NCBI GenBank assembly: GCA_903935095.1
Contig: CAIZQH010000021.1
Coordinates: 124,001-188,000, forward strand
DNA length: 64,000 nt
Direction: 5' to 3'
Source: an uncultured Flavobacteriales bacterium
Lineage (GTDB): Bacteria; Bacteroidota; Bacteroidia; Flavobacteriales_D; Crocinitomicaceae
Position numbers and translations under genes: made by a program
Notes under the pieces: model-generated
Databases searched by the model: none
Told to the model about the DNA's origin: nothing
Seen by the model: the letters and a program-made list of their open reading frames with translations, nothing else
Shown here: one piece after another, positions 1,061-56,157 of the stretch
Numbering within the stretch: position 1 is the first letter of the stretch
How the letters are laid out: each line of letters opens with the position of its first letter

Positions 1061-1065
1061 ACGGT

Positions 1066-1098
1066 AAAAAAAAAGCGTCCATTTGGACGCTTTTTTTT
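1066..1098. terminator. Bidirectional rho-independent terminator
   Basis: A-tract, gcgtcc, loop attt, ggacgc, T-tract. The stem extends by A-T pairing and both strands end in a U-run, so it can stop dnaE and the convergent zinc-ribbon gene alike. Confidence 0.85.
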
Positions 1099-1109
1099 AT
1101 CATTGAATT

Positions 1110-1862: not shown

Positions 1863-1865
1863 GTT

Positions 1866-2960
1866 CTATAGATAGTTAATAGGATTCGTATTTAAATCAG
1901 TTAAATGGACTGCAAATTTAGTAAATTTTTCTTTAAGTTTTTCAGCTAATAATTGCGGAGTGAATTGTTCGCTTTCAAAATGACCAATATCTGCAATAAT
2001 TAGGTGATTTTCCGCATCAAAAAACTCGTGGTACTTGAAGTCCCCTGTTATAAAAATATCTGCTTTTGACTTAATGGCATCCGCCAATAAAAAACTTCCG
2101 GATCCACCACAAATCGCTACGGTTTTTATGTATTTTTTACAGATATCCGTATGTCGAATCACCTTACAATGAAAGCGCTTTTTCAGTTGTAGCAAGAATT
2201 CAGTAGTTTCCATGGCTTCTGTCAATTCGCCTAACATTCCAGCGCCAAGATTTGGATTGACGTTATCAATTGGATAAATTTCATGTGCAACTTCCTCATA
2301 CGGATGTGCATCTTTCATCGCGGAAAGCGCTTTTCCAATGACGGATTTCGGCACCAAGTATTCCACACGAAATTCTTTTACCTCTTCGCGAAAATGACTT
2401 GTGCCAATCGTTGGATTTGCCAACTCATTTGGCATAAATGTCCCAATCCCTTCCGTTCTAAAGTGACATTCGGAATAATTCCCAATCGTTCCAACACCTT
2501 GCTCGAAAAGTGCGTGATCCAAGGCAGAAAGAGCATCTTGTGGCACAAATACAACAAGCTTGTACAATTGTTGTTGCATCGGACGAAGAATACGTAGATT
2601 CGTTAATTCAATTCTTTTGGCAATTTCAGCATTTACACCGTCAATGTGATTATCTAAATTCGTATGAATGGCATATAGGGAAATACGGTTTAGTATGCAT
2701 TTTTCAATGACACGCTCTACATAGGATGTTCCTGTGATTTTTTTCAGACCTTTGAAAACAATGGGATGATGCGCAATAATTAATTCACATTTTTTAGCGA
2801 TAGCTTCATCAACCGTCGCTTCTATACTATCCAAACAAATAAGAGCGGCGCTCACCTCTTGATCCATTCGTCCGCAAATCAAGCCGGAATTATCATACGA
2901 TTCCTGTAATGAAAGTGGAAAAGATGTTTCGAGATAGCTTACGATGTCTGCGACTTTCAT
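1866..2960 (-). CDS. Nif3-like dinuclear metal centre protein
   Basis: 364 residues, the long form of the Nif3/YbgI/YqfO family, in which a PII-like domain is inserted between the two metal-binding halves. Metal ligands are visible as IIAHHP (His64, His65), HTNLDNH (near 100) and a C-terminal GHFESEQF segment. Members form toroidal hexamers with two metals per subunit; some are annotated GTP cyclohydrolase I type 2, but the true substrate is unsettled. It lies between an outer-membrane protein gene (2 bp upstream) and the zinc-ribbon gene, in one tight run. Confidence 0.88.
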   Translation of the reverse strand: MKVADIVSYLETSFPLSLQESYDNSGLICGRMDQEVSAALICLDSIEATVDEAIAKKCELIIAHHPIVFKGLKKITGTSYVERVIEKCILNRISLYAIHTNLDNHIDGVNAEIAKRIELTNLRILRPMQQQLYKLVVFVPQDALSALDHALFEQGVGTIGNYSECHFRTEGIGTFMPNELANPTIGTSHFREEVKEFRVEYLVPKSVIGKALSAMKDAHPYEEVAHEIYPIDNVNPNLGAGMLGELTEAMETTEFLLQLKKRFHCKVIRHTDICKKYIKTVAICGGSGSFLLADAIKSKADIFITGDFKYHEFFDAENHLIIADIGHFESEQFTPQLLAEKLKEKFTKFAVHLTDLNTNPINYL

Positions 2961-2962
2961 AC

Positions 2963-3685
2963 TTAAAGTTTTCTAGTTAATGCAATGCCTCCACCTAATC
3001 CCGAGCTAAAATGTTTGTAATCTTGGTAGGGACCGTAGCTATTTGTGAGTTGATAACGGTAATTTAAGCTTATACGAAGTCCGTAATTACTTTTAAAATG
3101 AACGTGTATTCCGGTGCTTCCAGTTGCCGATAAAACAAACGATTGACACATGGTTTCATCAGTTAAGGTTAACTTGCTATTATTATTTAATGAATCGGTC
3201 CAATGAATATTTTGCTCGTATGATTGAAATAACTGAGGCGTAAGTCCAGCGCCTACAAAAAACACAAAGTTCTTTCCAGTTTGATACTTCAGTTGAATAG
3301 GCATTCCAAAATAGCGGTATTTCGTGGTATAGTCATAGCTAGAGTCAGTAGATGTAGCATTCCATTGGTATTGTTCTCCATTTTGAATCAAGGCAAGTCC
3401 ACCGTCAAAAGCAAAATGACGAGAAATAGGAGCGACAATGCCAAATTGAAAGGACCAAACTTTCAAGGCTGTTTCATACGCTCTTTCTCCCAAAGGAGTG
3501 CTTAAAAAATCAGTGTTTTGTGTAACATGTGGACTGGTCATATACCGTTGAAAATCTATGTAGATCGAGGAAGATGTGTCTTTGATTGACTTGGATTTTT
3601 TGTTGTTATCCTGACCATTCGTAATGAGTTGTGCGCTGACATACCATGGAAAGAAAAAGAAAAACAGAACAAGAAGTGTTTTCAT
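2963..3685 (-). CDS. Outer-membrane beta-barrel protein, unknown function
   Basis: 240 residues with a clear Sec signal peptide (MKTLLVLFFFFFPWYVSAQ). The mature part alternates polar and aromatic residues and has amphipathic strands such as YGLRISLNYRYQLTNSYGPY, ending in an aliphatic/basic strand (GGGIALTRKL), as in small Bacteroidota porin-like (OmpA-barrel-like) proteins. It starts the three-gene run with the Nif3 and zinc-ribbon genes. Assignment is to a fold type only; ligand and role cannot be told. Confidence 0.65.
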   Translation of the reverse strand: MKTLLVLFFFFFPWYVSAQLITNGQDNNKKSKSIKDTSSSIYIDFQRYMTSPHVTQNTDFLSTPLGERAYETALKVWSFQFGIVAPISRHFAFDGGLALIQNGEQYQWNATSTDSSYDYTTKYRYFGMPIQLKYQTGKNFVFFVGAGLTPQLFQSYEQNIHWTDSLNNNSKLTLTDETMCQSFVLSATGSTGIHVHFKSNYGLRISLNYRYQLTNSYGPYQDYKHFSSGLGGGIALTRKL

Positions 3686-36383: not shown

Positions 36384-37928
36384 TTATTTGACTACCCCCC
36401 AATTCCCTCTATCTAGACTTCGGTATTGAATGGCTTCCGCAATGTGATTTGATTGAATGCTTCCCGATGCGTCCAAATCAGCGATGGTGCGTGCCACTTT
36501 GATGATGCGGTCGTATGCTCGTGCGGAGAGTCCAAGCTTGTTCATCGCCATTTTTAGCAAATTGGTTCCGGCATCGTCTAGTTGGCAATTCGCTTCAAAC
36601 TCTGACTTTGACATTTGTGCATTGCAGTGCATTCCTTCTCGATTCATGAAGCGGTCTCGTTGAATTTTACGGGCTTTTTCCACACGTAAACGAATGGACC
36701 GACTTCCTTCGCTTGGTACAGTTGATGACAGTTCATCAAAGTTCACAGGTGTAACCTCTACATGCAAGTCAATACGGTCCAATAATGGACCCGAAATACG
36801 ATTCAAGTATTTCTGCACAACTCCTGGACCGCAAACACACGTTTTCTCTGGGTGATTAAAGAATCCACACGGACACGGATTCATTGCGGCAACGAGCATG
36901 AATCCCGCTGGATAATCGATGGAAAAGCGTGCCCTCGAAATATTGACAACGCGATCTTCTAGCGGTTGACGCATGACTTCCAGTACATCACGTTTGTATT
37001 CAGGAAGTTCATCTAGAAAAAGCACACCGTTGTGCGCCAAAGAAATTTCACCTGGTTGCGGATAGGAGCCCCCGCCGATTAAACCGATATCAGAGATTGT
37101 GTGATGGGGTTTTCTAAACGGACGCTGGGTGATGAGTCCGACTGGATTTTTGATCTTACCGGCAACGCTGTGAATCTTTGTGGTTTCTAATGCTTCCTCA
37201 ATGGTCATCTGTGGAAGAATGGTCGACAAGCGTTTGGCCAACATCGATTTTCCGGCGCCAGGCGGACCGATGAGAATCACGTTGTGAGAACCAGCAGCCG
37301 CAATTTCGAAGGCACGTTTGATATTCATTTGTCCCTTTACATCGCGAAAGTCGTCATCAAAAATATCTGTGTTTTGTTGGAAAGATGCGGAGATGTCTAC
37401 AATCGTTGGTTTCAAAGCAGAATCATCGTTCATGAAGTCAATGACTTCGCGCATATTCTCCACACCGTACACCTTTATTTCTTGAACGACGGCAGCTTCT
37501 TGCGCGTTAATCTTCGGGACGATGATTCCTTTAAATCCTTCTTTCTTCGCTTGCAGTGCGATGGGTAGAATTCCTTTTGTTGCTTGAACGGAACCGTCGA
37601 GTGACAATTCTCCAATCATCAGGTACTCATTCAGGTGATCGATTTTTACTTGTTCACTGACCGCTAGAATTCCAATGGCGATGGGTAAATCGAAAACGGA
37701 TCCTTCCTTGCGAATATCTGCGGGAGCCATGTTCACCGTGATTTCTTTTCCGGGAAATTTAAGGTCATTGTTTTTAAAGGCAGCTTTGATGCGTTGCTGA
37801 CTTTCTTTGACGGAATTATCGGGTAATCCGACAAGATAAAAGTTGACACCAATGCCTAAATTGACTTCAATCGTGATGGTTGTGGCATTGATACCGAAGA
37901 CGGTACTGGAGTAGGTTTTGACTAACAT
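36384..37928 (-). CDS. comM: ComM/YifB-family AAA+ ATPase (Mg-chelatase-like)
   Basis: 514 residues. N-terminal S5/Lon-like domain ([22 protein letters not shown]); Walker [14 protein letters not shown]; Walker B LFLDELPE; Cys-rich loop PCPCGF and CVCG; and the C-terminal helical region. ComM is a hexameric helicase that promotes branch migration during natural transformation, so this is a marker of possible competence. It is unlinked to other competence genes here. Confidence 0.93.
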
Positions 37929-40749: not shown

Positions 40750-41976
40750 TCAAGGTTCCATCTCGCTTAATCGCTTAAAAAAAGAAGCGGCAATTTGATC
40801 TCTGTTAAAATGAGAACTTACATATTTGCGCCCATTTTCCCCTGCTTTTTTGATCTCTTCCGGATTAGCAACTATATATTGAACACAAGTAGCAAGGTCC
40901 GTTTCATTTTCTGGCTCGAAGTACCATCCAGCTAAAGCTTGATTGATAAAATGTCTCCTTGCTTCACCATTTACACCCAAAAGCAAAGGGACTTCCATTG
41001 CTAGTGCTTCAAATACTTTTGAAGGAATAGCCCCTTCAAAAATGGCTAATTTTTTTAATGGTACTAAAGCAACATCAATAGACTTCAGTATTGCCGGCAT
41101 TTCACTTTTTGAAACGGGACATAAAAAATGAACATTTTTAAGGTCGAGTGATGTTTTTAATTCAGTTAACTTATCTTTCTCGGGACCAGATCCCTGGAGT
41201 ATGAAATGAACATTTAAGTGTGGTTTTAGCAAGTGAGCAGCTTTCAATATAATTTCTAAGCCCTGTGCATGTCCAAGGATTCCTCCATAGAAAAATAATA
41301 AATCAGATGGAGTAAATCCATTTTTTTCTCTAAAGTCACTGTTTTGTATTTTGTTCGGCTGATAAAAATCAATATTTACTCCGTTTGGCAACCAATACAC
41401 ATCTTTCTTAGGGAAACGCTTGGAAATGTTCTTTACGATTCCCTCAGTTTGTCCGGTAATCAGAGAAGCTCGTTTATAACATGTAGCCTCCAAACGGTAA
41501 GCCATTTTCAGAAACAATGCGTTGTTCACGATACCAAGTTTTTCAGCACTTTCAGGCCAAAGGTCACTCACGTTGAAAATGAGCTTAGCCTTAAGTTTTC
41601 TGCTCAATGCCATTGCGCTATAGCCCAAGAAAAGCGGTGGACTTTCAACAAGTAGGTAATCAAAAGAATCTAATTTTCTACCGCGCCAATAGGAAGTCCA
41701 AACAAAACTGAAGTAGTTCAATAATCGCGCGATAAATCCTTTTGACGTTGTGACATAAATGCTGGCACGATGAATAGCGATTCCATCAATAACCTCTTCG
41801 CGATTCATCCCATTTTCATACCCTTTCTGGATGGTCATTTCCGGGTAGTTAGGCACGGCCGTTAGCACTTCAATGTGAATGTTATTTTTTGCCAACCTAA
41901 CGGCTAATTCATGAAGACGATTCTGAGGCGCACCAATTTCAGGGGGGTAATATTGTGTTAAAATGAGCAATCGCAT
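40750..41976 (-). CDS. GT4-family glycosyltransferase
   Basis: About 408 residues, GT-B fold. N-terminal RLLILTQYYPPEIGAPQNRL and the nucleotide-sugar site near 300 (KVFEALAMEVPLLLGVNGEARRHF) are typical of WbuB-like GT4 enzymes that add amino sugars such as N-acetylfucosamine. The open frame runs 39 codons further, but the ATG at 41976 starts at the conserved MRLLIL and lies 1 bp from the stop of the preceding gene. Last gene of the operon. Confidence 0.88.
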   Translation of the reverse strand: MRLLILTQYYPPEIGAPQNRLHELAVRLAKNNIHIEVLTAVPNYPEMTIQKGYENGMNREEVIDGIAIHRASIYVTTSKGFIARLLNYFSFVWTSYWRGRKLDSFDYLLVESPPLFLGYSAMALSRKLKAKLIFNVSDLWPESAEKLGIVNNALFLKMAYRLEATCYKRASLITGQTEGIVKNISKRFPKKDVYWLPNGVNIDFYQPNKIQNSDFREKNGFTPSDLLFFYGGILGHAQGLEIILKAAHLLKPHLNVHFILQGSGPEKDKLTELKTSLDLKNVHFLCPVSKSEMPAILKSIDVALVPLKKLAIFEGAIPSKVFEALAMEVPLLLGVNGEARRHFINQALAGWYFEPENETDLATCVQYIVANPEEIKKAGENGRKYVSSHFNRDQIAASFFKRLSEMEP

Positions 41977-41977
41977 C

Positions 41978-43258
41978 TTAGTTGATATTTCTTTTGTCCA
42001 CATAAGGGTTTGTGGAAGTTGAATAAACGACAAGTAGGCAAATCCAAAAAATAAAAAACACAATTCCAGTTTGACGTTGTAACATCGATTCAAATAAGCA
42101 ATTGAAAATCAAGCAAAAAACCAGGAATATTAATAACCAGTTTTGGCTTCTAAAACCAATTTTAATGGTTTGGAAAAGACTCCATAAAAAAACAATGATT
42201 CCTATAATACCTAATTCTATTCCAATTTGCAAAAATTGATTGTGTGGGTTATATTTAATTTCAAAATTTTGATCTAGTTTGGCAAGTTCGAATTGACCAA
42301 CATGTATTAACTCTTTACTCAGATATTCATCTACATTTCCTGTGCCAACGCCGAACGGATGTTGTGCCCATGTTTTGATTGAAACTGTCCACATAACTAA
42401 TCTGACTTGATCCCCGGAAAGTGATTTATTATTTCCTTGGATAAATTTTGTTGGATTTACCAAATAATTACTTAATGCGACTTTTGAATTATTTACTTCA
42501 TCTTTGAACGCGGGGACAATGGAAAGTAAAAAGATTAAAAGAAAAGGGAAAAACAGGAAGAAGGAAATGGACATCCATTTAATTCGTTTTAAATAAACCC
42601 ATCTTAGCATGAAAAATGAAAAACACAGTAACAAAAATAATATTGCAGCCATGGCATAACTTAAAAAAATCATAATCAGCGTGAAAGACAGGAATAAATA
42701 GCTCAAACCCCCATTAAATCCTAAGGTTTTTTCTCGACGCAAGTACCAAACACTCGCGACGGAAAATGTGGCAATCGCTGAAAAATAGCTTGGATGATCT
42801 ATACAGATGTTACTTGAAGTAAATGAAGCGAAAAGACAGTTAGAAGTGTAATAAACGCTAAATGCTTTGAAGATTCCAAAAATGGAAGCTAAGAATACAC
42901 CAAGGGCTGACCCAACAATTGGGAAAGCTAATTTCACTCTGAAATCTGGTCTAAAACTAAATAAAATGGGTACTAAAATGAAGGTCAATTTGTACTCAAG
43001 GTATTTGGAGGCAGTTGAAATGTGATGTGTGAAAAAACACCCAAAAACATAGCACAGATAGAGGGAAATAAACAAGATAAACACAGAATTCAATTTAAAT
43101 TTGATTTCTTTATTTTTAAGACCGATGAATATCGTCAAAAACAGGCATGTAAAACCAAGAACAACAAGTTTTGGAAATACCGCTATCAAAAATGCAATGA
43201 AACTCAAGGCTAAATGAAAAGCTAAGTCAACGTTCACCTTTCCAAAAACTAATTTCAT
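41978..43258 (-). CDS. O-antigen ligase/polymerase-like membrane protein (Wzy_C)
   Basis: 426 residues, about ten hydrophobic segments by eye. The long periplasmic loop holds the conserved region around HPFGVGTGNVDEYL ... YNPHNQFLQIGIELGIIG, the Wzy_C/WaaL signature with its His. Such proteins polymerise or ligate O-antigen chains at the outer face of the inner membrane. It overlaps the next upstream gene by an ATGA. Together with the 551-residue protein upstream, this operon has two polymerase/ligase-type proteins. Confidence 0.82.
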   Translation of the reverse strand: MKLVFGKVNVDLAFHLALSFIAFLIAVFPKLVVLGFTCLFLTIFIGLKNKEIKFKLNSVFILFISLYLCYVFGCFFTHHISTASKYLEYKLTFILVPILFSFRPDFRVKLAFPIVGSALGVFLASIFGIFKAFSVYYTSNCLFASFTSSNICIDHPSYFSAIATFSVASVWYLRREKTLGFNGGLSYLFLSFTLIMIFLSYAMAAILFLLLCFSFFMLRWVYLKRIKWMSISFFLFFPFLLIFLLSIVPAFKDEVNNSKVALSNYLVNPTKFIQGNNKSLSGDQVRLVMWTVSIKTWAQHPFGVGTGNVDEYLSKELIHVGQFELAKLDQNFEIKYNPHNQFLQIGIELGIIGIIVFLWSLFQTIKIGFRSQNWLLIFLVFCLIFNCLFESMLQRQTGIVFFIFWICLLVVYSTSTNPYVDKRNIN

Positions 43259-44244
43259 CTGTTTATTTGATTTATAGCCGAAAAATAGACTTCTTCCACT
43301 TTTTTAATGGAACTAAGATAATCTAATTTCCGAGCTTTCAGTATACTTAAACCGTTTGTACTAGTTGCTCCTCTTTCTATTAAATACTGTATTTTAGCTG
43401 CTAATTGTATCGAGTCCTGTGGTACTATGAAACAATGATCTACCTCATTTATCGTTGATTTCACATCTCCAACGTCGGTTGAAACAATTGGCACTCCACA
43501 AGCTAAAGCTTCTTTAATGACCATTGGACTCCCCTCACTATCCGAACACAATAACACCACATTTGAGGCATTTAAATATGTGGGTATTTCATCTGGATTG
43601 ACATTGCCTTTCAATGATAATAATTCAATGTGATAATCCTTTAATTGTTCTACAACGTCTAATGCGATATCAAGTCTTTTTATAATGGGATTATTTGCAT
43701 TAAAAAAAATATAATTTATTGATTCACTTAATCCTAAGCTCTTTTTGCATTCCTGTTTGTTCATTTTTTTAAAACGCCTTGTATCTACACCTGAGGGAAT
43801 CACCGTTGATTTCTCGATCCCAACGGGTAAATTTCGCTGCAATTGATTGCTAACACAAATGATTTTTCGAGCATGTTCTGCCGCTATTCTGCTGAGTAAT
43901 TTACCTAATTTTTCTCTTATCCAATGAACATCATTGGTGTAATTCAAATCGCTTCCATGAAACGATACAACCAAGGGAATCTCTTTAATTCTCGAGGCAA
44001 AATAGGCATTGATTGTTCCGTAATGAGCATGAATAATTTGAGGCTTTTGTTCATTTACAAGTTTTCGTAAAGCACTCAATTGTTTAAAAAACCCCCAAAT
44101 GGAAAATGTCGTTTTAAAATAAAAAACTTCATTTTGATGACCTAAATCTGATAAGTCTTCAACTTGTCTTTTGGCAAAGATGAAAGACGATGCTGAAGAA
44201 TGATAAGGGATAACATGCAAAATCCTTAAATGCCTATTTTCCAT
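43255..44244 (-). CDS. GT4-family glycosyltransferase
   Basis: 329 residues, GT-B fold. LRILHVIPYHSSASSFIFAKRQVE at the N-terminus and the donor site EGSPMVIKEALACGVPIVST mark a GT4 transferase; VSFHGSDLNYT is the linker-side region. It should add one sugar in the repeat unit. It overlaps the polymerase gene by 11 bp upstream and the ligase-like gene by 4 bp downstream. Confidence 0.88.
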   Translation of the reverse strand: MENRHLRILHVIPYHSSASSFIFAKRQVEDLSDLGHQNEVFYFKTTFSIWGFFKQLSALRKLVNEQKPQIIHAHYGTINAYFASRIKEIPLVVSFHGSDLNYTNDVHWIREKLGKLLSRIAAEHARKIICVSNQLQRNLPVGIEKSTVIPSGVDTRRFKKMNKQECKKSLGLSESINYIFFNANNPIIKRLDIALDVVEQLKDYHIELLSLKGNVNPDEIPTYLNASNVVLLCSDSEGSPMVIKEALACGVPIVSTDVGDVKSTINEVDHCFIVPQDSIQLAAKIQYLIERGATSTNGLSILKARKLDYLSSIKKVEEVYFSAINQINR

Positions 44245-45889
44245 TCTTTAAAGATTTTGGACGGAAGAATTGACGCGAATAAATAGCTATAAATAGTATG
44301 AAACAAGGGATTAAGACGCTTTCATAAAGTAGTGCTTTAAACGATTCTGGACCTGTGCGCACCATCATTGCGCCAAAACTTGTTATTCCGCATAGTGCAA
44401 AAATGGCAAATAATTGAAATAGGTTATTTTTTGATGTAACGTATAAATAGTAGGGGAATAGCACCAAAATGGATAAAAAAAGGGGTCCAAGGATTAATCC
44501 AAAATAAGCAAAATTTAAGTACCATCCTGTGATGTAATTTATTGTGAATCCTTGATTCGTTTTAAATCCCATCTGTTTAGCATAATATGAATAGGCATCT
44601 TCAGGTCTTTTCTTAACGATTGTGGAGGGAATAAATGAATAGAGCAAATTCTTAAAACTCAAGCCGAATTTTGGTTGAACATTTTTTGAAAGTACGCCAT
44701 ACAATGAAAAATGTCCAGCAAAAAGTTCATTGCTAAACACCAAATTACTTAAGGCAAGTGCAATTTTAGTTAAGCTGGAATTTTTCTGATAGGCCATAGA
44801 GATATGACCATTTGCAATTTTGAATTTCTTATTGTTGAATCGGATATAGTCTGGATGTAACCTCAATTGCTTCACCAATTCATTTTTATTGAGGACAATA
44901 GTGTCCGATTTTAGGTATAATATGGTATCCCTTTCTGCATTTATTTTGATTATTTCTGTAGATATTTTTTTTGATTTATGCGAAACGAATGTGCGGTCAT
45001 TTGAATATAAAATGGATTCAGACAAGTTTTTTTCTGTAGACAATAATGATGTTAACCCTGTATTTTTCGATATCAGCGGCATTAAACTTCGAATAGGGTC
45101 ATTTAACATAAGTATGAAAAGCCAAATTAATATTACGGCGAAATATAATTTCTTCGTGTGTTTTATACTTCTGTAAGGAAATGTCATCATAAGCAGTACC
45201 ATGATTCCTCCAAAAAATACCTCATGACGCGAGCCGATCATAATAAGATAAAGGTTGCAAAATGCAAAGACGGTCCAAAAAAGTATACTTGGCTTAGTCA
45301 CCGAAATGGGTAAATTGTTTTGTTTTAAATATAGTCCGATGTAAGAAAATAAACTTACAACGATGATCCAACAAGCATATTGATGCAGTATATAGTTATT
45401 AATGGCGGTGTTTCTGATATTTAAATAGATAGACTCATTCAATATAAGGGAATAAATAATGACGTCCTTGACAACCCAAATAGAAACGAAAAGAAAGAAT
45501 AAGGCGATAAACAGGAAGGTTTTTGGTTGAATAGAAATTGATTTTAGTTCCCTTTTAAATTCTGGTAGTTTTTTAATTTGATTAAGGCCAATCCATATAC
45601 ACACTTGAAAGAGAAGAATGAAAAAGCCATACATCCAAATCATTTGCAGATAAAAAATGTCGAAATCGACATAAAACATCTTTTCAAGTAAATAATAATA
45701 ATGAAAACCAATCTTTTTCCCCACATTGGTCAGTCGATCAAAACTAAACAACCAACCTCCTGCCAAAGTCCAGAAGTAGAATATGGCTGTGAAAACTGGA
45801 AAGATAATGTTCCGTTCTAATTTCCAAATTTTCATTTGAAACCATAAAATGGTGAAAGAGATGATGAGTAAGGAAATGAGGATGGTCAT
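44234..45889 (-). CDS. Polysaccharide polymerase-like membrane protein (Wzy-type, O-antigen polymerase)
   Basis: 551 residues with many hydrophobic segments. Motifs are weak, as in all Wzy proteins: the core fold and position in the operon are the main support. Residues ~265-385 form a hydrophilic insert, rich in K/S/N, between membrane segments, larger than in typical Wzy and likely to face the periplasm. The C-terminal RTGPESFKALLYESVLIP region resembles oligosaccharide repeat-unit polymerases. Overlaps: 4 bp with the flippase gene, 11 bp with GT4. Confidence 0.7.
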   Translation of the reverse strand: MTILISLLIISFTILWFQMKIWKLERNIIFPVFTAIFYFWTLAGGWLFSFDRLTNVGKKIGFHYYYLLEKMFYVDFDIFYLQMIWMYGFFILLFQVCIWIGLNQIKKLPEFKRELKSISIQPKTFLFIALFFLFVSIWVVKDVIIYSLILNESIYLNIRNTAINNYILHQYACWIIVVSLFSYIGLYLKQNNLPISVTKPSILFWTVFAFCNLYLIMIGSRHEVFFGGIMVLLMMTFPYRSIKHTKKLYFAVILIWLFILMLNDPIRSLMPLISKNTGLTSLLSTEKNLSESILYSNDRTFVSHKSKKISTEIIKINAERDTILYLKSDTIVLNKNELVKQLRLHPDYIRFNNKKFKIANGHISMAYQKNSSLTKIALALSNLVFSNELFAGHFSLYGVLSKNVQPKFGLSFKNLLYSFIPSTIVKKRPEDAYSYYAKQMGFKTNQGFTINYITGWYLNFAYFGLILGPLFLSILVLFPYYLYVTSKNNLFQLFAIFALCGITSFGAMMVRTGPESFKALLYESVLIPCFILFIAIYSRQFFRPKSLKNGK

Positions 45890-47136
45890 TTTAAGTTTTT
45901 TAGAGAAAGGTAGGTTTTTATGAGCGTAAGAATCCCTAAAATATTTAAAGAAACGACAAAATAATACAAATAATCATTTAACGGAACGTCATTTGAATTT
46001 CCGTATACGATCAATAACACATAGATGATGAGTACAATGATCAAATTGGTAGCGTTTTTTGCTTGGACATGAATAGCATCTAAAAAACTACGCAAAACGA
46101 TGTATAACACATATCCAAAACTTCCCAGCAACATGATGCTTGCCATGTCAAATAGTTCTTTTCGATGGTTAGTTCCAAGAAGTATATTAAAAATGAAGTC
46201 ATGGAAAAAATAAAAAATCAAGTATCCGATCAGGGTCAACGTAATACTTGAAAGAACGAATACATAAAATCTATTTCGAATTAAGTCAAATCTTTTTTCA
46301 CGCATAAACCCACCAATTTCAGGTAATAAAACAATGCTTATAGGACCAAAAGCGGCTCCAATTAAATTCAATAACGTGATGGAATAAGCGACATCACCAC
46401 CTAATAGTACATTTTTTGAAATGGATAAAACAATGTAGGCCGGAAAAGTTAAGATTGCCAATAAAGCGAAATCACCTAAAACTCTTGGTATTCCATAATT
46501 TAACAATGTTCGCACGTCTTCTAAACACAATTTTATATCTAATTGAATGTTGTTTTTAATGAAAATCGAGATGCTAAAAACCACGCAAAGTAGTATCAAT
46601 ATAACACCATTGAAAAGTAATAATGACGGTATATTTTGGGTGTGAAATAAAACCATGATGGGTAAAATCCCTACATGCAAGAATTGTATGAAGTTGGAAA
46701 AAAAGATGTCCTTTTTACCCCTTAAGTAGCCATAAAGAATGGCATGATATCCATATCCAATGAGCAGAATAGTTAGTGGGACAATAAAGGATTGATATTT
46801 GTCGTTACCAAAAAACAAAGTGGAAAAAAAACGATTTCCTAATCCGAGGATGATTAAAAATATTGTCCCCACAACCGCCAAAAGAAATAAACCAGCTGGC
46901 AAAAATGAATTTCTATCAGGTGAAATACTGATGTATCTCGGTACAGCAACACCCAAACCAATCATTAATAATGGTTGTAAAAAAGAGATGTTTCTTCTAG
47001 ATAAAGCATATTCACTAAAGCCAATTTCGGTCATTCGTTCACTTGCAATTCTGAAAATAATGAATCCTAAAATCAGAATGAAAAATTCAGTTCCAAAAGT
47101 GACGATGTAATTTTTATGTTTTACAAAAAAACTCAA
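45886..47136 (-). CDS. Polysaccharide flippase (Wzx/MOP superfamily)
   Basis: 416 residues, twelve or so hydrophobic segments. N-terminus SFFVKHKNYIVTFGTEFFILIL and the KKDIFFSNF loop suit Wzx-type MOP exporters, which flip lipid-linked repeat units across the inner membrane. It is the first gene of the operon, and its start reads TTG (no ATG precedes within the frame; next Met is residue 35). A TATTTTTG match lies on the minus strand at 47186-47193, ~50 bp upstream. Confidence 0.82.
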   Translation of the reverse strand: MSFFVKHKNYIVTFGTEFFILILGFIIFRIASERMTEIGFSEYALSRRNISFLQPLLMIGLGVAVPRYISISPDRNSFLPAGLFLLAVVGTIFLIILGLGNRFFSTLFFGNDKYQSFIVPLTILLIGYGYHAILYGYLRGKKDIFFSNFIQFLHVGILPIMVLFHTQNIPSLLLFNGVILILLCVVFSISIFIKNNIQLDIKLCLEDVRTLLNYGIPRVLGDFALLAILTFPAYIVLSISKNVLLGGDVAYSITLLNLIGAAFGPISIVLLPEIGGFMREKRFDLIRNRFYVFVLSSITLTLIGYLIFYFFHDFIFNILLGTNHRKELFDMASIMLLGSFGYVLYIVLRSFLDAIHVQAKNATNLIIVLIIYVLLIVYGNSNDVPLNDYLYYFVVSLNILGILTLIKTYLSLKNLK

Positions 47137-47406: not shown

Positions 47407-48297
47407 ATGAAAAATGTTGCGGTAATCGGTGCTGGTACAATGGGAAATGGAATTGCGCATGTCTTTGCTCAATTTAATCACCAAGTGCATTTAATTGATG
47501 TTTCTCAAACTGCGTTGGATAAAGCCATTGCTACCATTGAGAAGAACTTGGACAGACAAGTAGCAAAAGAGGCAATTACTGCGGAAGATAAGGCGGCAAC
47601 CTTACAAAACTTGAAAACGTTTACCAGCATTGCTGAGGGTGTTAAGGGAGTGGAGTTAGTGGTAGAAGCAGCGACTGAAAACATTGATTTGAAATTAAAA
47701 ATCTTTAAGGAATTAGATGAATTGACCGCTCCCGAGGTAATTTTGGCTACCAATACTTCTTCCATTTCTATTACGAAAATTGCTTCTGTCACGAACCGTG
47801 CGGACAAAGTTATAGGCATGCATTTTATGAATCCAGTTCCTGTGATGAAATTGGTTGAAATTATCCGCGGTTATTCGACTTCTGACGAGGTGACAAACAC
47901 GATCATGGAAACGTCTCGCCAATTGAAAAAAGCACCTGTGGAAGTTAATGACTATCCTGGATTTGTAGCAAATCGCATATTAATGCCTATGATCAATGAG
48001 GCCATCTGCACCTTGTTTGAAAGTGTGGCAGGTGTCGAAGAAATTGACACGGTGATGAAATTAGGAATGGCTCATCCAATGGGTCCCTTGCAATTGGCCG
48101 ATTTTATTGGATTGGACGTTTGTTTAGCAATCCTTGAAGTCCTGCATGATGGATTCGGAAATCCAAAATATGCACCTTGTCCATTGTTGGTTAATATGGT
48201 CATGGCAGGTAAGAAAGGAGTAAAATCAGGCGAAGGATTTTATTCGTGGACACATGGCACAAAAGAACTTATAGTTGCTTCGAATTTCAAGAAATAA
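47407..48297 (+). CDS. hbd: 3-hydroxybutyryl-CoA dehydrogenase
   Basis: 296 residues. NAD site VAVIGAGTMGNGIAHVFAQ; the catalytic HFMNPVPVMKLVEII; NTSSISIT; and the C-terminal MGPLQLADFIGLDVC ... GEGFYSW. It reduces/oxidises 3-hydroxybutyryl-CoA in fatty-acid or butyrate metabolism. This intact copy is paralleled by a deleted copy at 52172-52491. The last bases encode the C-terminus of a minus-strand NUDIX remnant (below), so stop codons overlap tail to tail. Confidence 0.95.
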   Translation: MKNVAVIGAGTMGNGIAHVFAQFNHQVHLIDVSQTALDKAIATIEKNLDRQVAKEAITAEDKAATLQNLKTFTSIAEGVKGVELVVEAATENIDLKLKIFKELDELTAPEVILATNTSSISITKIASVTNRADKVIGMHFMNPVPVMKLVEIIRGYSTSDEVTNTIMETSRQLKKAPVEVNDYPGFVANRILMPMINEAICTLFESVAGVEEIDTVMKLGMAHPMGPLQLADFIGLDVCLAILEVLHDGFGNPKYAPCPLLVNMVMAGKKGVKSGEGFYSWTHGTKELIVASNFKK

Positions 48298-48370
48298 GTT
48301 CAGTTTTTAATTTTCTTAACAGAAGCTGATCAACTGGAAAAGTCAAGTCGTGTACTTGTAAATATAATTC
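48287..48370 (-). pseudogene. 3' remnant of a NUDIX gene, paralogous to the intact one downstream
   Basis: Read on the minus strand the stop at 48287 is preceded by DLTFPVDQLLLRKLKTELIS. The intact NUDIX gene (52481-52924) ends DFTFPIDQIVLVKLKESLIS, also overlapping the 3' end of an hbd copy. No frame continues upstream to a NUDIX box. A stop codon (taa) lies above 48418 in this frame. Confidence 0.65.
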
Positions 48371-48567
48371 ACGGTTGTCCACATGCGTTTTAATCGAAGT
48401 CCTTCTACTTTTAGAACGTTATTAATTTGAACATTATCTTCACACCATTCTTCCACTCCTGGCAAAATAAGATGAACCTCATAATCTGGAATTTGCATTG
48501 CTAACGAATGATATTCTCTCAAAACATGCGTACATCGCGACTTCTTAAATGAATGATTCTTTTGCGA
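48343..48567 (-). pseudogene. Decayed N-terminal part of a GT4-like glycosyltransferase
   Basis: An open minus-strand stretch of 74 codons without a start reads EYHSLAMQIPDYEVHLILPG, then VEEWCEDNVQINNVLKVEG and KRMWTTVNYIYK. This pattern (SLA, YEVHLI.PG, dnVqI..V, RM..TV..IY) is the N-terminal half of many GT4 enzymes. It ends where the NUDIX remnant begins, in a different frame; the rest of the gene is gone. No such gene is annotated by a start codon here. Confidence 0.5.
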
Positions 48568-48716
48568 CTACCCGTTTTATTAAACAAGTGTATTTGAATT
48601 CTGGTTTCAAAAATACAGAATTAAGTGTGAGCATAATGTGCAATATCATTTGTCAAGACTTTACTAACGGAACGTCTTAGTGAAATTTTAAGTATCTTCG
48701 TTACAATCAACAAAAG

Positions 48717-49295
48717 ATGCAGCAAAAACTAGGGTTTTTTCACAAAGTACTTCGTCGGTTCTTTTTATTGTTTCGTCCAGCAATGAACGGTCGAATTTTT
48801 GACAACGAGGGTAGGCGCATTGAAAAAACACGTATTTCCAATACCACCTTTATTGACCATCCACAATGTTTAAGGATTGGACCAAATGTCTTTATTGGAC
48901 ATTACAATTACCTTGAAGCGAGTAATGGAATAACCATCGAAGAAGGGTGTCAACTCACCACGTTTATCAACATTACCTCACATTCGAGTCATATGTCCAT
49001 ACGTTTGTATGGAAAGCATTATGGCGATTCAGAGATGAAAGGTTATGAGCGAGGAGAGGTGCACATTGGTAGATATTGCTTCATCGGACCACATTCGACC
49101 ATTATGCCAAAAACGAAAATCGGCAAAGGTTCCATCGTATCTGCATACAGTTATGTCCGAGGAGAATTTCCAGATTTCTCAATCATCTCAGGCAATCCAG
49201 CAAAAGTGATGGGTGATACACGAAACCTAGATGAACGCCAATTTCGTCAATTCCCCGAATTAAGAGCCTATTATGATGAGTGGTCAAAAGATTGA
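48717..49295 (+). CDS. Acyltransferase with left-handed beta-helix (hexapeptide repeats)
   Basis: 192 residues. Hexapeptide-type turns are visible from FIDHPQCLRIGPNVFIGHYN to VHIGRYCFIGPHSTIMPKTKIGKG, with a C-terminal GNPAKVMGD, as in maltose/galactoside O-acetyltransferase and WbbJ-type proteins that acetylate sugars. It starts a second small plus-strand glycan set. Its stop overlaps the start of the broken polymerase by 20 bp. The ATG at 48717 lies after caacaaaag, a weak ribosome site. Confidence 0.85.
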   Translation: MQQKLGFFHKVLRRFFLLFRPAMNGRIFDNEGRRIEKTRISNTTFIDHPQCLRIGPNVFIGHYNYLEASNGITIEEGCQLTTFINITSHSSHMSIRLYGKHYGDSEMKGYERGEVHIGRYCFIGPHSTIMPKTKIGKGSIVSAYSYVRGEFPDFSIISGNPAKVMGDTRNLDERQFRQFPELRAYYDEWSKD

Positions 49296-49823
49296 TCTTT
49301 TGGGAAATTACTTGGGGGCTTTTCTGGTTTTTGCCTTTATCTGTTTACCGGCGATAACACTTAAAGTAAATACACCTTCCGTTTTTTTTAAATCACTTCC
49401 TATAATAACAGCTTTTTTGATGAATCCGTTTTGAATAGCGTGTTTTCACGAGGAAGGATAGAAACATGGAAATTACTTGAAGAAATGATCCTGCAGAAAC
49501 CCCTTGTTGGACTTAATCCGTTCAATCAGTCTTTCTACGAAAACAAGATGTATTCTGAAAATGAACACGTGTTAATGTCTTGGCGATATGTCCTCATTGG
49601 TTTGCTTATTTACCTTTCTATTTTTTTCATCCCAATTAAAAAAATGTGGAAAGAACTAAGTGATACCAACATACAAGGAAGTTTATTAATTTTACTGATG
49701 TTGGTCAGCGCATTGACAAACAATCCCTTTACTGAGCGAAATGTAGATTTGTTATTCTGTGTTGGATTAGCTTGGGTCATCGGAAAGGAATTCAAGAAAG
49801 AAAAAGATCATGCAGAAGTCTAA
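49276..49823 (+). pseudogene. Broken O-antigen polymerase/ligase gene (internal deletion and frameshift)
   Basis: A 52-codon frame from ATG 49276 encodes an N-terminal membrane segment (LLGNYLGAFLVFAFICLPAI) and stops at 49434. In another frame, open from ~49392, FFDESVLNSVFSRGRIETW continues to 49823 with PLVGLNPF, a short HVLMSW segment and two or three C-terminal membrane helices, as in Wzy_C proteins. About 180 codons remain of an expected 400. Both ends overlap neighbours (acyltransferase, GT4) as an intact operon gene would. Confidence 0.75.
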
Positions 49824-50847
49824 GAAATTGTTGTTAATTGGAGGAAGTAAAGGAAATGTTCACTTATTGAACTTCCATCGATTGATCACATCGTATTTTG
49901 AAGAAATTTTGATCGTATCTAATCAGGAAATAGAGCAAGCAGCAGCGAAGGTCTTGAATTTCGAATTAAAGAATCCATTTGGGATGCTCAAGAATGTTCA
50001 CAAATTAAAATCAATCATTCGAGAATTTCAACCTGATGTCATTCACGTACATCAAGCGAATGCCTATGGTTTTATTACTAGTTTGGCAAACCAAGGAAAA
50101 AAACCCTTGGTTCTGACCACTTGGGGAAGCGATGTCTTGACGCTTCCAAAACGAAGTATTTTACACCGATGTATGGTAAAATATGTTTTAAATAGTGCTA
50201 TCGAAATTACTGCGGATGCTCAGTTTATGGCAGACGCCATCAATGAATTAGTTGGTCCAATGCCGGTTGTTATTGCCAACTTCGGCGTGGAAATCGCTAC
50301 AGTAGAAAACACACTGCCACGAGATAAGGTGATTTATTCAAACCGCATGCATGAGCCTCTATACCGCATTGAACAAATCATTTTACAATCCGCACCGTTT
50401 CTATTGGCCAATCCAGCATGGAAATTACGCATCGCTGCCAGTGGATCTCAAACGGAACGATTGAAACAAATCTCGGAACAACTGTTGCCAGAATCAAGTG
50501 TTGAATTTATCGGTTTTCAATCCGCACAGGAAAATCGTGAAAATTACTTGCGATCAACGGTGTATGTCTCGATTCCAAATACCGATGGGACCTCTATTAG
50601 TTTATTAGAAGCGATGGCGTATGGTTGCTTACCAGTCGTTTCCGATTTACCAGCGAATCGCGAGTGGATTGAAAATGGCGTCAATGGAATTGTGTCTAAT
50701 GGAAACTTAAGTGAGGAAATGATGGAAATTCTTGAAATGGATCATGTTTCGATTCAAGAAAAAAATGCAAAGATTATTGAAGAGAAGGCAACGAAGAACG
50801 CAAACAAACAAAAATATGAAGCGATTTACGACCGTATTTTCTCTTGA
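49810..50847 (+). CDS. GT4-family glycosyltransferase
   Basis: 345 residues, GT-B. SKKLLLIGGSKGNVHLLNFHRL at the N-terminus; VIHVHQANAYGFI; LTTWGSDVLTLP; donor site TSISLLEAMAYGCLPVVSD. It lies in the second glycan set, with a 14-bp overlap with the broken polymerase. It ends tail to tail with the flippase gene, sharing 22 bp. Confidence 0.87.
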   Translation: MQKSKKLLLIGGSKGNVHLLNFHRLITSYFEEILIVSNQEIEQAAAKVLNFELKNPFGMLKNVHKLKSIIREFQPDVIHVHQANAYGFITSLANQGKKPLVLTTWGSDVLTLPKRSILHRCMVKYVLNSAIEITADAQFMADAINELVGPMPVVIANFGVEIATVENTLPRDKVIYSNRMHEPLYRIEQIILQSAPFLLANPAWKLRIAASGSQTERLKQISEQLLPESSVEFIGFQSAQENRENYLRSTVYVSIPNTDGTSISLLEAMAYGCLPVVSDLPANREWIENGVNGIVSNGNLSEEMMEILEMDHVSIQEKNAKIIEEKATKNANKQKYEAIYDRIFS

Positions 50848-52124
50848 GAAGCTTTTAGCGCAAATAAATAGAAAACGATAATCGTTACAAGTAACCAAGC
50901 TGCCTGTGTGTAGGAAACAACTTGTAAACTGGTGTGAAAAACCTCTTGTGTTTTTCCATATTTCCATGGGAAATACCATAATGGTATTACTTGGATCAAG
51001 GAACTGACGATTCCCATGAAGAAAAAGATATTTTGCTTTCTTAAGATCAAGGGCAATGCAGCTATTGGAGATAAAATAAAATTAATCATTAGCCAAACGG
51101 ACATGGTTTCAGAGTAAGATCCCGACAAGCCCCAATCTTTTCCAAATACAAATGCAAACAAGGGTTCACCGTAAAAGAAAAGAAGGCCAAAAGGAATGAT
51201 GGACAAGGCACTTAACGCAAGTAACATTTTATTGAGCAAAGGAATCATGGATTTCCCTGCGTTGTACGAGTCAGAAGCTCGGTGGTAGAATAATTGCCCA
51301 AGTGAAACTCCAACGAGCATTAAAGGTAATCTAAGCATGGTATAGGAATGGTTGAAGGAACCGTAAACTGATTCGGAATAGTATGCGAAAATAAAGGTGG
51401 CAATTAACATGTCCCTACCATTGTCCACGAATACATGCGGCAAGTTCAAAATGGGAAATTCCCGGTGTTTTTTCATCAAAACCAACGTCTTTCTTTTGGA
51501 AATGAATTGCTTGAATTTCTGGTGAATCTTTCCAAAGTGAAATGAAAATTCAAGGGAGGAGAAGAATGAGCCAATAAATGTGGCAAGGATCAATCCAAAC
51601 GTACTGAAGTGGAAGTAGGCAAAGGCCCATTTTAAGGCATTTGAAACGGATGAATTTGTGATTTTTTGACGAGAGATCATTCCGTATTGTCCCATTCGAA
51701 CGGACCAACTAGTCCCGATATTTACAACGATGATACATGCAGTACTTAAAATGATAAGGACGTAAAACCACCAACTAAATTGGTCAGCAAAACCACTTGA
51801 ATACATGAAAACGAATACGATACTGACAAACATGAGAACGATGAAGGAGATGCGATAGGAAAGACGGTAAAGCAGGAAAGAATGTCCATCGAGCTTCGGT
51901 AAGGGCAATGCAGCTTCATATCTCAATGTTGCGACGGCGGCGATGAATGCGGTCAGACGCATGTAAAAGCCGAGTTCCCCCATTTCGGCGGTCGTATATA
52001 AACGTGTGAGAATGGGGGCAATGAGGTATCCTACTGCTTGTGCAATGATGGTGCCTGATAAGAGGATGCTCAGGGATTTTGAGAAATCAGATCCTAGGAG
52101 TTGACGTATTCGATTCATAGCCAT
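50826..52124 (-). CDS. Polysaccharide flippase (Wzx/MOP superfamily)
   Basis: 432 residues, about twelve hydrophobic segments. SGTIIAQAVGYLIAPILTRLY and GELGFYMRLTAFIAAVATLRYEAALPLP fit MOP-type lipid-linked oligosaccharide flippases. It runs opposite to its neighbours and is separated from the hbd pseudogene by 47 bp. A TATCTTTG on the minus strand (52131-52138) would leave almost no leader to 52124, so the second Met (52118, MNRIRQLLG) may be the true start. Confidence 0.8.
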   Translation of the reverse strand: MAMNRIRQLLGSDFSKSLSILLSGTIIAQAVGYLIAPILTRLYTTAEMGELGFYMRLTAFIAAVATLRYEAALPLPKLDGHSFLLYRLSYRISFIVLMFVSIVFVFMYSSGFADQFSWWFYVLIILSTACIIVVNIGTSWSVRMGQYGMISRQKITNSSVSNALKWAFAYFHFSTFGLILATFIGSFFSSLEFSFHFGKIHQKFKQFISKRKTLVLMKKHREFPILNLPHVFVDNGRDMLIATFIFAYYSESVYGSFNHSYTMLRLPLMLVGVSLGQLFYHRASDSYNAGKSMIPLLNKMLLALSALSIIPFGLLFFYGEPLFAFVFGKDWGLSGSYSETMSVWLMINFILSPIAALPLILRKQNIFFFMGIVSSLIQVIPLWYFPWKYGKTQEVFHTSLQVVSYTQAAWLLVTIIVFYLFALKASQEKIRS

Positions 52125-52171
52125 TCTCTACAAAGATACAATGATTATAGTTGTGAACTAAATGGATGTTT

Positions 52172-52491
52172 ATGAAGAATGTTGCGGTAATCGGTGCTTG
52201 TACAATGGGAAATGGAATTACGCATGTCCTTTATGAATCCAGTTCCAGTGATTAAATTAGCAATGGCTCATCCAATGGATCCCTGTTAATTGGACGATTT
52301 TATTGGATTGGACGTTTGTTTAAATTCCTTGAAGTCCTGCATGATGGATTCGGAAATCCAAAATATGCACCTTGTCCAATGTTGGTCAATATTGTCATGG
52401 CTGGTAAGAAAGGAGTAAAATCTGGCCAAGGATTTTATTCGTGGACCATGGCACGAAAGAGCTCGTTGTCGCTCCTAACTTCAAGAAATAA
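52172..52491 (+). pseudogene. Deleted copy of 3-hydroxybutyryl-CoA dehydrogenase
   Basis: Starts ATGAAGAATGTTGCGG and keeps the NAD-site coding, then jumps to the MNPVPV region and, in a second jump, to the AMAHPM region; the 3' part ends HGTKELVVAPNFKK. Three blocks parallel the intact gene (47407-48297) with frameshifts. Both joins lie at short direct repeats found in the intact copy. Many changes in the surviving parts are at third codon positions, as between two once-functional alleles. Confidence 0.85.
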
Positions 52492-52924
52492 GCGATTCCT
52501 TTAATTTCACAAGTACGATTTGATCAATTGGAAAGGTGAAATCTTTTTCATTTAGTTCATGAATGTACACCCATCTTTGTTTTTCTGTTTCTTCTTGAAA
52601 TGGAATGGAGTAGTTACGAGTTCCAATTTTTTCTGGCTCCTTTAGTCTTACTAGATAGTAAAATGCGACAAGTTGTTGCGATGGATCAAAAGCGGATACT
52701 TGTACAAAATCATTGAAATAAAAAAAAGAGGAGTCCAGCATTTCTGCGGATAACTCCTCTTGTAATTCTCTTTTTAATGCATCAAGTACACCCTCGTTGG
52801 CTTCGATTCCTCCACCAGGAAATTTCGTGAAAAAGTGTCCGAAGCGACATTCATCGGAAACGAGAATGTGATTCGATTCATTTAAAATCAAAGCGTAAAC
52901 ACGAAGATTAAAACGATGCGCCAA
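52481..52924 (-). CDS. NUDIX hydrolase
   Basis: 147 residues. The NUDIX box is split between FTKFPGGGIEANEGVLDALK and RELQEELSAEM, giving the GxnEx7REUxEE pattern. It probably cleaves a nucleotide diphosphate derivative; no substrate can be named. The start codon reads TTG (52924); no ATG lies nearby, and the family-like FNLRVYALILN follows. Its 3' end overlaps the hbd pseudogene. It stands 2 bp from the enolase gene. Confidence 0.82.
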   Translation of the reverse strand: MAHRFNLRVYALILNESNHILVSDECRFGHFFTKFPGGGIEANEGVLDALKRELQEELSAEMLDSSFFYFNDFVQVSAFDPSQQLVAFYYLVRLKEPEKIGTRNYSIPFQEETEKQRWVYIHELNEKDFTFPIDQIVLVKLKESLIS

Positions 52925-55419: not shown

Positions 55420-56157
55420 TTATGCGTTTTCTTCGCTATTTTTTGTGTCTTCTGTTTCAGGAGCCTCGTCAATTGCTACTTCCGGAGCTGCTTCTTCAGC
55501 AATAACCTCTTCAACAGCTACTTCTTCAGCAACTACTTCTTCAGCAATAACCTCTTCAACAGCTACTTCTTCAGCAACTACTTCTGCAGTAACAACCTCT
55601 TCAACAGCTACTTCTTCAACAGCAGCTACTTCTTCAACAGCTTCTTCAGCAATTTCAGCAACATTTTCTACAACAACTGCATCGTCAGCAATTGCATCCG
55701 TTGTTTCTGTTGTTTCAACGTTGACAGTGTCATCTTTTTTAGCACCACCACGACGAGATCGACGAGTAGTTTTCTTCGCGTTATCGTTGTTGTATAATTC
55801 GTTGTAATCAACCAATTCAATCATACACATTTCCGCGTTGTCACCTAAACGGTAACCAGTACGAATAATTCGCGTGTATCCACCAGCACGATGAGCAATT
55901 TTTGGAGCTACATCTCTGAATAATTCAGTTACCATCTCTTTGTTTTGAAGGTAAGAGAATACAACACGACGAGAGTGTGTAGAATCTGTTTTTGCTTTCG
56001 TTAAAATCGGTTCAACAAATACGCGTAAAGTTTTTGCTTTGGCGATTGTAGTTGTAATACGCTTATGTTCGATTAATGAACAAGCCATATTTTGAAGCAT
56101 CGCTTTGCGGTGGCTTGTTTTTCTTCCTAAGTGATTTATTTTATTTCCGTGTCTCAT
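55420..56157 (-). CDS. rplQ: 50S ribosomal protein L17 with long acidic repeat tail
   Basis: 245 residues. Residues 1-~120 are the L17 core ([21 protein letters not shown] ... [16 protein letters not shown]). Residues ~128-142 are a basic linker ([14 protein letters not shown]), and ~143-245 are almost only A, E, V, I, D and T. Within the tail a 15-residue unit is repeated from a 45-bp exact tandem duplication. L17 elsewhere has 115-130 residues, though some Bacteroidota are longer. Last gene of the operon. Confidence 0.93.
55491..55628. repeat. 45-bp tandem repeat in the rplQ tail
   Basis: 55491-55535 and 55536-55580 are identical on the plus strand (unit begins cttcttcagcaataacctct); 55581-55628 is a degenerate third copy with point changes and a small insertion. 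Each unit encodes 15 residues on the minus strand. Confidence 0.9.

What the first reader, a model, noticed from the sequence alone, without database searches (positions are those of the whole stretch)
47407..52924. Polysaccharide genes bracketed by two reciprocally decayed hbd-NUDIX junctions
On the left hbd is intact and only the last ~27 codons of a NUDIX gene survive. On the right NUDIX is intact and hbd is a 320-bp deleted copy. In both the NUDIX stop overlaps the hbd 3' end in the same way, so the two junctions descend from one. Between them are an acyltransferase, a broken polymerase, a GT4, a flippase and a decayed GT. This is what remains if an alternative polysaccharide cassette with its own flanks came in by homologous recombination, or a segment was duplicated, and the redundant half of each copy was lost. 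Differences in the copies are partly at third codon positions, favouring two diverged alleles.
Basis: partly seen in the sequence, partly recalled or inferred. Interest (0 to 1): 0.68.

Follow-up and report, generated by a model that had tools for sequence, protein, structure and literature searches.

The report
Sugar-coat genes stacked by recombination
A Crocinitomicaceae bacterium appears to have picked up a second surface-sugar gene set that landed beside, instead of fully replacing, its old one, leaving two half-broken copies of the neighbouring genes as scars; the process is known from other bacteria, but comparable scars turn up here in a few related species too.

Summary
Intact hbd (47407-48297) is followed by the last ~25 codons of a NUDIX gene. 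3.9 kb further on, a decayed hbd (52172-52491) overlaps an intact NUDIX gene in the same 11-nt way. The 13 closest genus genomes have one hbd-NUDIX junction and one cassette left of hbd, either A-type (like window 42-47.2 kb) or B-type (like 48.4-52.1 kb). The window is an A-B hybrid: A-type genes with hbd and a NUDIX stub are fused, at about 48353-48363, into a B-type glycosyltransferase gene (about codon 82), and B-type genes run on to eno. The two closest core relatives compared are B-type, so A is most likely the newcomer, joined by one illegitimate breakpoint. The two hbd copies are one allele over nt 1-800; most third-position differences come from a ~300-bp patch of another allele class on the right. 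Three B genes stay open where the pseudogene's rate would predict about 6 stops. Related scars occur in G016/G285 and G006. This is a known kind of event (compare meningococcal galE1/galE2) in a new lineage.

The parts
40750..47136 (-). A-side polysaccharide genes, all open: GT4 (40750-42093), Wzy_C protein (41978-43258), GT4 (43255-44244), 551-aa protein of no known family (44234-45889), MOP-fold flippase wzx_416 (45886-47136)
   Evidence: ORFs; Pfam; fold; the last four in the same order in A-type genomes G036, G339, G337, 67% nt over 42019 to about 47.2 kb. The first GT4 is not in those genomes but resembles G002/G032/G215 (62-66% aa).
47407..48297 (+). hbd, 3-hydroxybutyryl-CoA dehydrogenase, intact
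   Evidence: NF004474; PF02737/PF00725
48287..48360 (-). NUDIX remnant, last ~25 codons, stop overlapping hbd by 11 nt
48353..48363 (.). breakpoint between NUDIX stub and B-type GT gene
   Evidence: the longest hbd-NUDIX alignments to relatives end at 48353-48363 (G015, G002, G333, G325); B-type GT alignments begin at 48355 (tblastn) to 48368 (blastn)
48355..48555 (-). B-type GT4 gene remnant (residues 4-82), decayed
   Evidence: tblastn; intact orthologue Pfam
48717..49295 (+). B-type hexapeptide O-acyltransferase act192, intact
   Evidence: PF00132; 87-88% aa to G333, G325, G015
49276..49823 (+). B-type Wzy_C polymerase/ligase remnant: codons 1-50 and 262-407, about 210 codons deleted
   Evidence: intact orthologues PF04932
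49810..50847 (+). B-type GT4 GT345, intact
   Evidence: PF13477/PF00534; 83% aa to G325, 68% to G333
50826..52124 (-). B-type flippase wzx432, intact
   Evidence: MOP fold; orthologue PF13440; 91% aa to G325, 89% to G333
52172..52491 (+). decayed hbd, two large internal deletions and two small indels
52450..52750 (.). patch of a second allele class (G015/G310/G032 type) covering the hbd 3' end and NUDIX C-terminal part; edges approximate
   Evidence: sliding identity, tree
52481..52924 (-). NUDIX hydrolase gene, intact
   Evidence: PF00293
52927..54213 (-). eno, conserved right flank
   Evidence: TIGR01060

Best explanation
The genus has a surface-polysaccharide locus whose right anchor is hbd-NUDIX-eno. 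The window's ancestor carried a B-type set there. DNA with A-type genes plus hbd and the NUDIX 3' end entered. Its left end exchanged by homology somewhere to the left (position not resolved). Its right end was joined illegitimately, NUDIX about 25 codons from its end to about codon 82 of the resident B-type glycosyltransferase. The left half of B was replaced; its right half, the old hbd, NUDIX and eno stayed. The old hbd, now redundant, decayed; the B polymerase lost ~210 codons; the acyltransferase, GT4 and second flippase were kept under selection, so the cell probably makes an A-type polymer, perhaps modified by B enzymes. A ~300-bp patch of another allele class replaced the hbd 3' end and the C-terminal part of the right NUDIX at an unknown time. 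Shown: hybrid order, breakpoint, allele patch, decay, open B genes. Inferred: order of events, one-step joining, transformation as the route, B gene function.
For: Single junction with an A or B cassette in 13 of 13 genomes with hbd at 92.5% aa or more: 8 B-type, 1 partly B-like (G032), 4 A-type; in G327 the contig ends inside NUDIX. One breakpoint truncates both NUDIX and the B-type GT. Nearest core relatives of those compared are G310 and G333 (rpoB 95.2/93.7, gyrB 89.1/87.2, parE 91.6/88.6% nt, gene plus flanks), both B-type. B genes match G325/G333 at 78-83% nt except GT345 to G333 (67%), near hbd (84-87%), while A genes match A-type G036 at 66-68%. The B flippase-hbd junction aligns without a break to B-type genomes; on the A side homology to A-type genomes includes 33 nt before hbd. 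Private changes of the decayed copy spread over codon positions 6/4/4. No stop in 2907 bp of B genes where 6.2 are expected at the pseudogene's rate, none in 0.25% of 2000 simulations. DprA and ComEC family genes are in the genome.
Against: The hbd beside the A genes is the same allele as the decayed one, so A must have come from a strain of the same species, or the copies were homogenised later. The left crossover is not found: identity to all relatives collapses at 40.0 kb, a gene boundary. The leftmost GT4 is not A-type. B genes are themselves mosaic, so they may have been refreshed by recombination, which weakens the selection test. act192 dN is higher on the window side (0.075 to G333 against 0.044 for G333-G325), hinting at relaxed selection. 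G310 shares the B type but has a different hbd 5' allele. Of the four A-type genus genomes, only G036 (and G339 for gyrB) was in the core comparison.
Confidence: 0.7

Rival explanations
1. Mirror image: the ancestor was A-type, and a B-type fragment (GT remnant to hbd-NUDIX) came in, with homologous exchange at NUDIX/eno on the right and illegitimate joining on the left.
For: The anatomy is symmetric. The right NUDIX carries a foreign-looking patch, and the left junction's alleles are of the class found in G333, a close core relative.
Against: The two closest core relatives compared, G310 and G333, are B-type. B genes are nearly as close to relatives as hbd is, while A genes are at 66-68% nt to G036. 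The NUDIX N-terminus and eno beyond the patch are G333/G310-like, so the patch is local.
Confidence: 0.14
2. A full tandem of two complete loci (duplication or single-crossover integration) existed first, and each copy then lost its redundant half by deletion.
For: Both hbd copies are one allele over nt 1-800. A later deletion from NUDIX into the GT gene would give the same joint.
Against: Needs one more event. No region with a full tandem was seen among the 79 read (many are cut by contig ends). The cassettes beside the copies are of different types, so duplication alone cannot be the source.
Confidence: 0.12
3. Assembly chimera of an A-type and a B-type strain.
For: Probably a metagenome assembly (29 contigs; several relatives are titled MAG); no reads could be checked.
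Against: The joint lies between two unrelated genes, with no long repeat for an assembler to cross. The hbd, GT and Wzy pieces beside it are decayed, which a chimera of living strains would not give. Contamination estimate 0.01. Related remnants occur in other genomes.
Confidence: 0.03

Closest known systems
Neisseria meningitidis cps island with intact galE1 (Region D) and truncated galE2 remnant (Region D'), PMC5349592 (passages read)
   Same: A polysaccharide locus bounded by an intact and a truncated copy of the same housekeeping gene. That paper proposes illegitimate recombination of the incoming locus into the resident gene, and names the galE copies among the recombination sites in serogroup switching.
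   Different: There the copies are inverted, a capsule-null locus was filled, and the block can invert. Here the copies are direct, an existing cassette was half replaced, and the remnant gene is hbd.
Salmonella galactose-initiated O-antigen clusters between galF and gnd, PMC3715488 (passages read)
   Same: Mosaic polysaccharide clusters in which an older wzy survives as a remnant after a new one is gained.
   Different: The remnants lie inside the cluster; no duplicated anchor gene is described in the passages I saw.
Homology-facilitated illegitimate recombination, PMC3240628 (abstract and outline seen)
   Same: One end integrates by homology, the other is joined illegitimately, as proposed for this joint.
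   Different: Experimental systems with small DNA; here the event is inferred from its scar, and the homologous end is not located.

Membership tests
Polysaccharide-locus exchange between conserved flanks (capsule/O-antigen switching) | Conserved flanking genes with different cassettes between them in relatives | tested here: met
   eno right of hbd in 64 of 79 genus regions, NUDIX between in 58 of those 64; A-type in 5 of 79 (window among them), B-type genes left of hbd in 23 of 79 (window not among them). Contig ends cut some regions.
Polysaccharide-locus exchange between conserved flanks (capsule/O-antigen switching) | Cassettes encode GTs, a Wzx flippase and a Wzy protein | tested here: met
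   GTs and Wzy_C; MOP fold of both flippases. The fold also matches MATE transporters, so flippase function is inferred from context.
Polysaccharide-locus exchange between conserved flanks (capsule/O-antigen switching) | Recombination tracts at the anchors | tested here: met
   Allele switch inside the hbd/NUDIX anchor (Fisher 4e-6, boundary post hoc; trees; profile)
Exchange leaving a truncated anchor copy (galE1/galE2 type) | Intact and truncated copies of an anchor gene flank the cassette | tested here: met
Exchange leaving a truncated anchor copy (galE1/galE2 type) | Inverted copies allowing cassette inversion | tested here: not met
   Both hbd copies are on the + strand
Homology-facilitated illegitimate recombination | One homologous end and one end without homology | tested here: inconclusive
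   Right joint without extended homology; left crossover not located
Transposon- or IS-borne cassette | Transposase gene near the cassette | tested here: inconclusive
   No transposase hit among the family-scanned genes from 38.8 to 55.3 kb, but the 551-aa protein matched no Pfam family, and short overlapping frames and terminal repeats were not tested.

The most novel reading that the evidence does not exclude
In this genus hbd is a reusable docking site at which incoming polysaccharide sets are stacked beside the old one instead of replacing it, and the acyltransferase-GT4 pair (act192-GT345) is a portable modification module kept while the polymerase beside it is lost. In the window the pair survives with a broken polymerase; in G016 it sits alone between hbd and NUDIX, and G285 has the same start (its contig ends after act192). 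The stacked locus would then make a hybrid surface polymer.
Probability: 0.3. Interest if true: 0.5.

Novelty: new member of a known kind. Interest (0 to 1): 0.36.

Why it matters
Surface-polysaccharide switching is usually seen as its end product, a clean swap. Here what looks like an intermediate is preserved with its breakpoint, and a few related species carry comparable scars at the same anchor, so the path of a switch (join, redundancy, decay, retention of useful genes) can be read in environmental Bacteroidota. It also gives a test: are the stacked acyltransferase, GT and second flippase still used to make a hybrid polymer that could change phage sensitivity?

Tried and rejected
Nucleotide alignment of the NUDIX stub to the own intact NUDIX was weak at first (14 of 1000 shuffles reached the score in one setting, 17 of 500 in the other); against other relatives the homology is clear, because the right copy was patched from another allele class. 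I first read the hbd mosaic as 'left copy foreign, G036-like' from five relatives; with thirteen this fell, as the patch is on the right. I looked for the left crossover of the A genes and did not find it. Synonymous rates were saturated for most cassette genes, so the selection argument rests on open frames and codon-position counts. One search printed an expected indel number from a hard-coded count of 3; the alignment shows 2 small indels, which gives about 18 expected by hand (2/324 x 2907). One search counted 327 aligned hbd sites from typed ranges; the true number is 324. Two one search hits were set aside as not comparable: L090 (44 nt, 79.5%) and L102 (55 identical nt next to a split match). 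The first core comparison lost hits through a strand filter and was redone. Six literature searches gave the precedents cited; 'polysaccharide gene cluster' with 'Crocinitomicaceae' returned no paper, which is not proof of absence.
Full report
WHAT IS THERE. The window lies in a 2.48-Mb, 29-contig genome. An intact hbd (47407-48297) is followed convergently by the last ~25 codons of a NUDIX gene, and a 320-bp decayed hbd (52172-52491) by an intact NUDIX gene and eno. The decayed hbd aligns to the intact one at 89% over 247 bp and 93% over 60 bp. The NUDIX stub is 60% identical over 25 residues to the own NUDIX and reaches scores that 0 of 2000 letter shuffles reach against four relatives and the own right copy.

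RELATIVES. Of 86 genus genomes, 79 including the window's own have a full-length or nearly full-length hbd of this family, and I read the surrounding DNA of all 79 (many regions are cut by contig ends; G052, another genus, was dropped from the count). eno lies right of hbd in 64 of 79, with NUDIX between in 58 of those 64. All 13 genomes with hbd at 92.5% aa identity or more have the same 11-nt NUDIX overlap and nothing between; a second hbd was found in none of them; 12 of 13 show eno, while in G327 the contig ends first. Left of hbd they carry one of two sets. B-type (acyltransferase, Wzy_C protein, GT4, flippase wzx432): G002, G333, G325 (no Wzy there), G015, G226, G073, G310 (contig starts in the acyltransferase), G215; G032 has the flippase and Wzy only. 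A-type (Wzy_C protein, GT4, 551-aa protein, flippase wzx_416): G036, G339, G337, and G327 as far as its contig reaches. A-type genes also occur in two other genera of the family (G094, G060).

THE HYBRID. The window aligns to A-type genomes from 42019 to about 47.2 kb and from 33 nt before hbd into NUDIX. It aligns to B-type genomes through act192, the Wzy remnant, GT345, wzx432 and into the decayed hbd. The hbd-NUDIX alignments that run furthest end at 48353-48363 (G015, G002, G333, G325); others end earlier. The B-type material begins inside a GT4 gene, of which residues 4-82 remain in decayed form at 48355-48555. One breakpoint at about 48353-48363 therefore truncates both genes. The B Wzy protein, intact and with a Wzy_C domain in G002 and G015, lacks about codons 51-261 here.

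WHICH SIDE IS NEW. Of the relatives compared, rpoB, gyrB and parE (genes with flanks) put G310 (95.2, 89.1, 91.6% nt) and then G333 (93.7, 87.2, 88.6) closest; both are B-type. Some genomes gave no locus for some genes; alaS was compared for four relatives only, and of the A-type genomes only G036, plus G339 for gyrB, was included. B genes match G325/G333 at 78-83% nt except GT345 to G333 (67%), hbd matches at 84-87%, and A genes match G036 at 66-68%. So A is more likely the newcomer. The leftmost GT4 (40750-42093) is not in the A-type genus genomes and resembles G002/G032/G215, so the A side is itself mosaic, and the left crossover was not located.

THE TWO hbd COPIES. Of 27 differences over 324 aligned sites, 14 are private to the decayed copy, at codon positions 6/4/4, as for neutral decay. 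Of 12 sites where both states occur among 13 relatives, 11 lie after nt 800 (1 of 234 against 11 of 90, Fisher 4e-6, boundary chosen after seeing the data; with five relatives 0 and 10). A tree of nt 1-800 makes the copies sisters (100/99) in the G333/G325/G002 group. The hbd end plus NUDIX tail (114 columns) puts the right copy in the G015/G310 group (98/96) and the left with G325, with weaker support (89/73). Sliding identity shows that the right-hand patch spans only about 52450-52750; the NUDIX N-terminus is again 92-93% to G333/G002. So the two junctions are one species' allele, and the third-position signal comes mainly from a short exchange, not from two diverged hbd alleles.

ARE THE B GENES STILL USED? 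act192, GT345 and wzx432 (2907 bp) have no stop. At the decayed hbd's private substitution rate (14 of 324 sites) a simulation gives 6.2 stops on average and none in 0.25% of 2000 runs. The two small indels in the decayed hbd would predict about 18 in these genes (hand arithmetic). Differences to relatives fall mostly at third positions. Against this: the B genes are mosaic and may have been refreshed, and act192 shows somewhat raised dN. Both flippases model as MOP-superfamily proteins (best hits MATE, WzxE, MurJ; mean pLDDT 76 for wzx_416, whose other four models scored 52-66, and 86 for wzx432).

PARALLELS. In G016 the order is flippase-hbd-act192-GT345-NUDIX-eno, with act192 and GT345 intact, and no Wzy, wzx432 or second hbd found between; G285 shows hbd-act192 up to its contig end. 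In G006 a desaturase-family gene (PF00487) lies after the intact hbd, followed by a second hbd 3' end (nt 709-882, 87% nt) and NUDIX. Scanning for second hbd pieces gave clear ones only in the window and G006, in 117 loci (several of them the same genome twice) and 43 further genus regions. So scars at this anchor recur but are rare: 4 of 79 regions hold genes of the window's set right of hbd before eno or the contig end, window counted; this count does not see insertions of other genes.

MECHANISM AND KNOWN KIN. The simplest account is one-sided homologous exchange with illegitimate joining on the other side, as described for homology-facilitated illegitimate recombination (PMC3240628, abstract and outline seen). 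The genome has DprA and ComEC family genes, compatible with transformation but no proof of it. The closest published case I found is the meningococcal cps island, bounded by intact galE1 and truncated galE2, for which illegitimate recombination is proposed (PMC5349592, passages). This finding is a new member of that kind, in a Bacteroidota lineage, with an unusually legible breakpoint.

Noticed in passing
L119 (G006), oriented 763-3377: hbd, a PF00487 desaturase-family gene, a second hbd 3' end, then NUDIX: an independent scar at the same anchor.
   Followed up: partly
L137 (G018), L211 (G114), L217 (G289), L222 (G301): Long hbd-eno gaps. A gene like the G006 desaturase was seen in G018 (by alignment) and in G289 and G301 (by eye; no NUDIX found in these two); G114's gap of the same length as G018's was not read.
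   Followed up: partly
L215 (G242) and L219 (G234): A 931-933-aa protein and a 102-aa protein lie between hbd and eno, with no NUDIX found.
   Followed up: no
L129 (G016) and L200 (G285): Acyltransferase (and in G016 also the GT4) of the B-type set directly downstream of hbd.
   Followed up: partly
L136, L150, L229, L187: Two flippase-like genes in tandem near the cassette end, possibly another sign of stacked sets.
   Followed up: no
window 55420-56157: The gene at the rplQ position (working label, not family-tested) encodes 245 aa against 204-213 in G002, G015, G036 and G016, with an acidic alanine/valine-rich tail built of repeats (55464-55639).
   Followed up: no
window 36384-37928: A YifB-family Mg chelatase-like ATPase gene (TIGR00368) lies about 3 kb left of the polysaccharide genes; the ComM link to transformation is recalled, not tested.
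   Followed up: no
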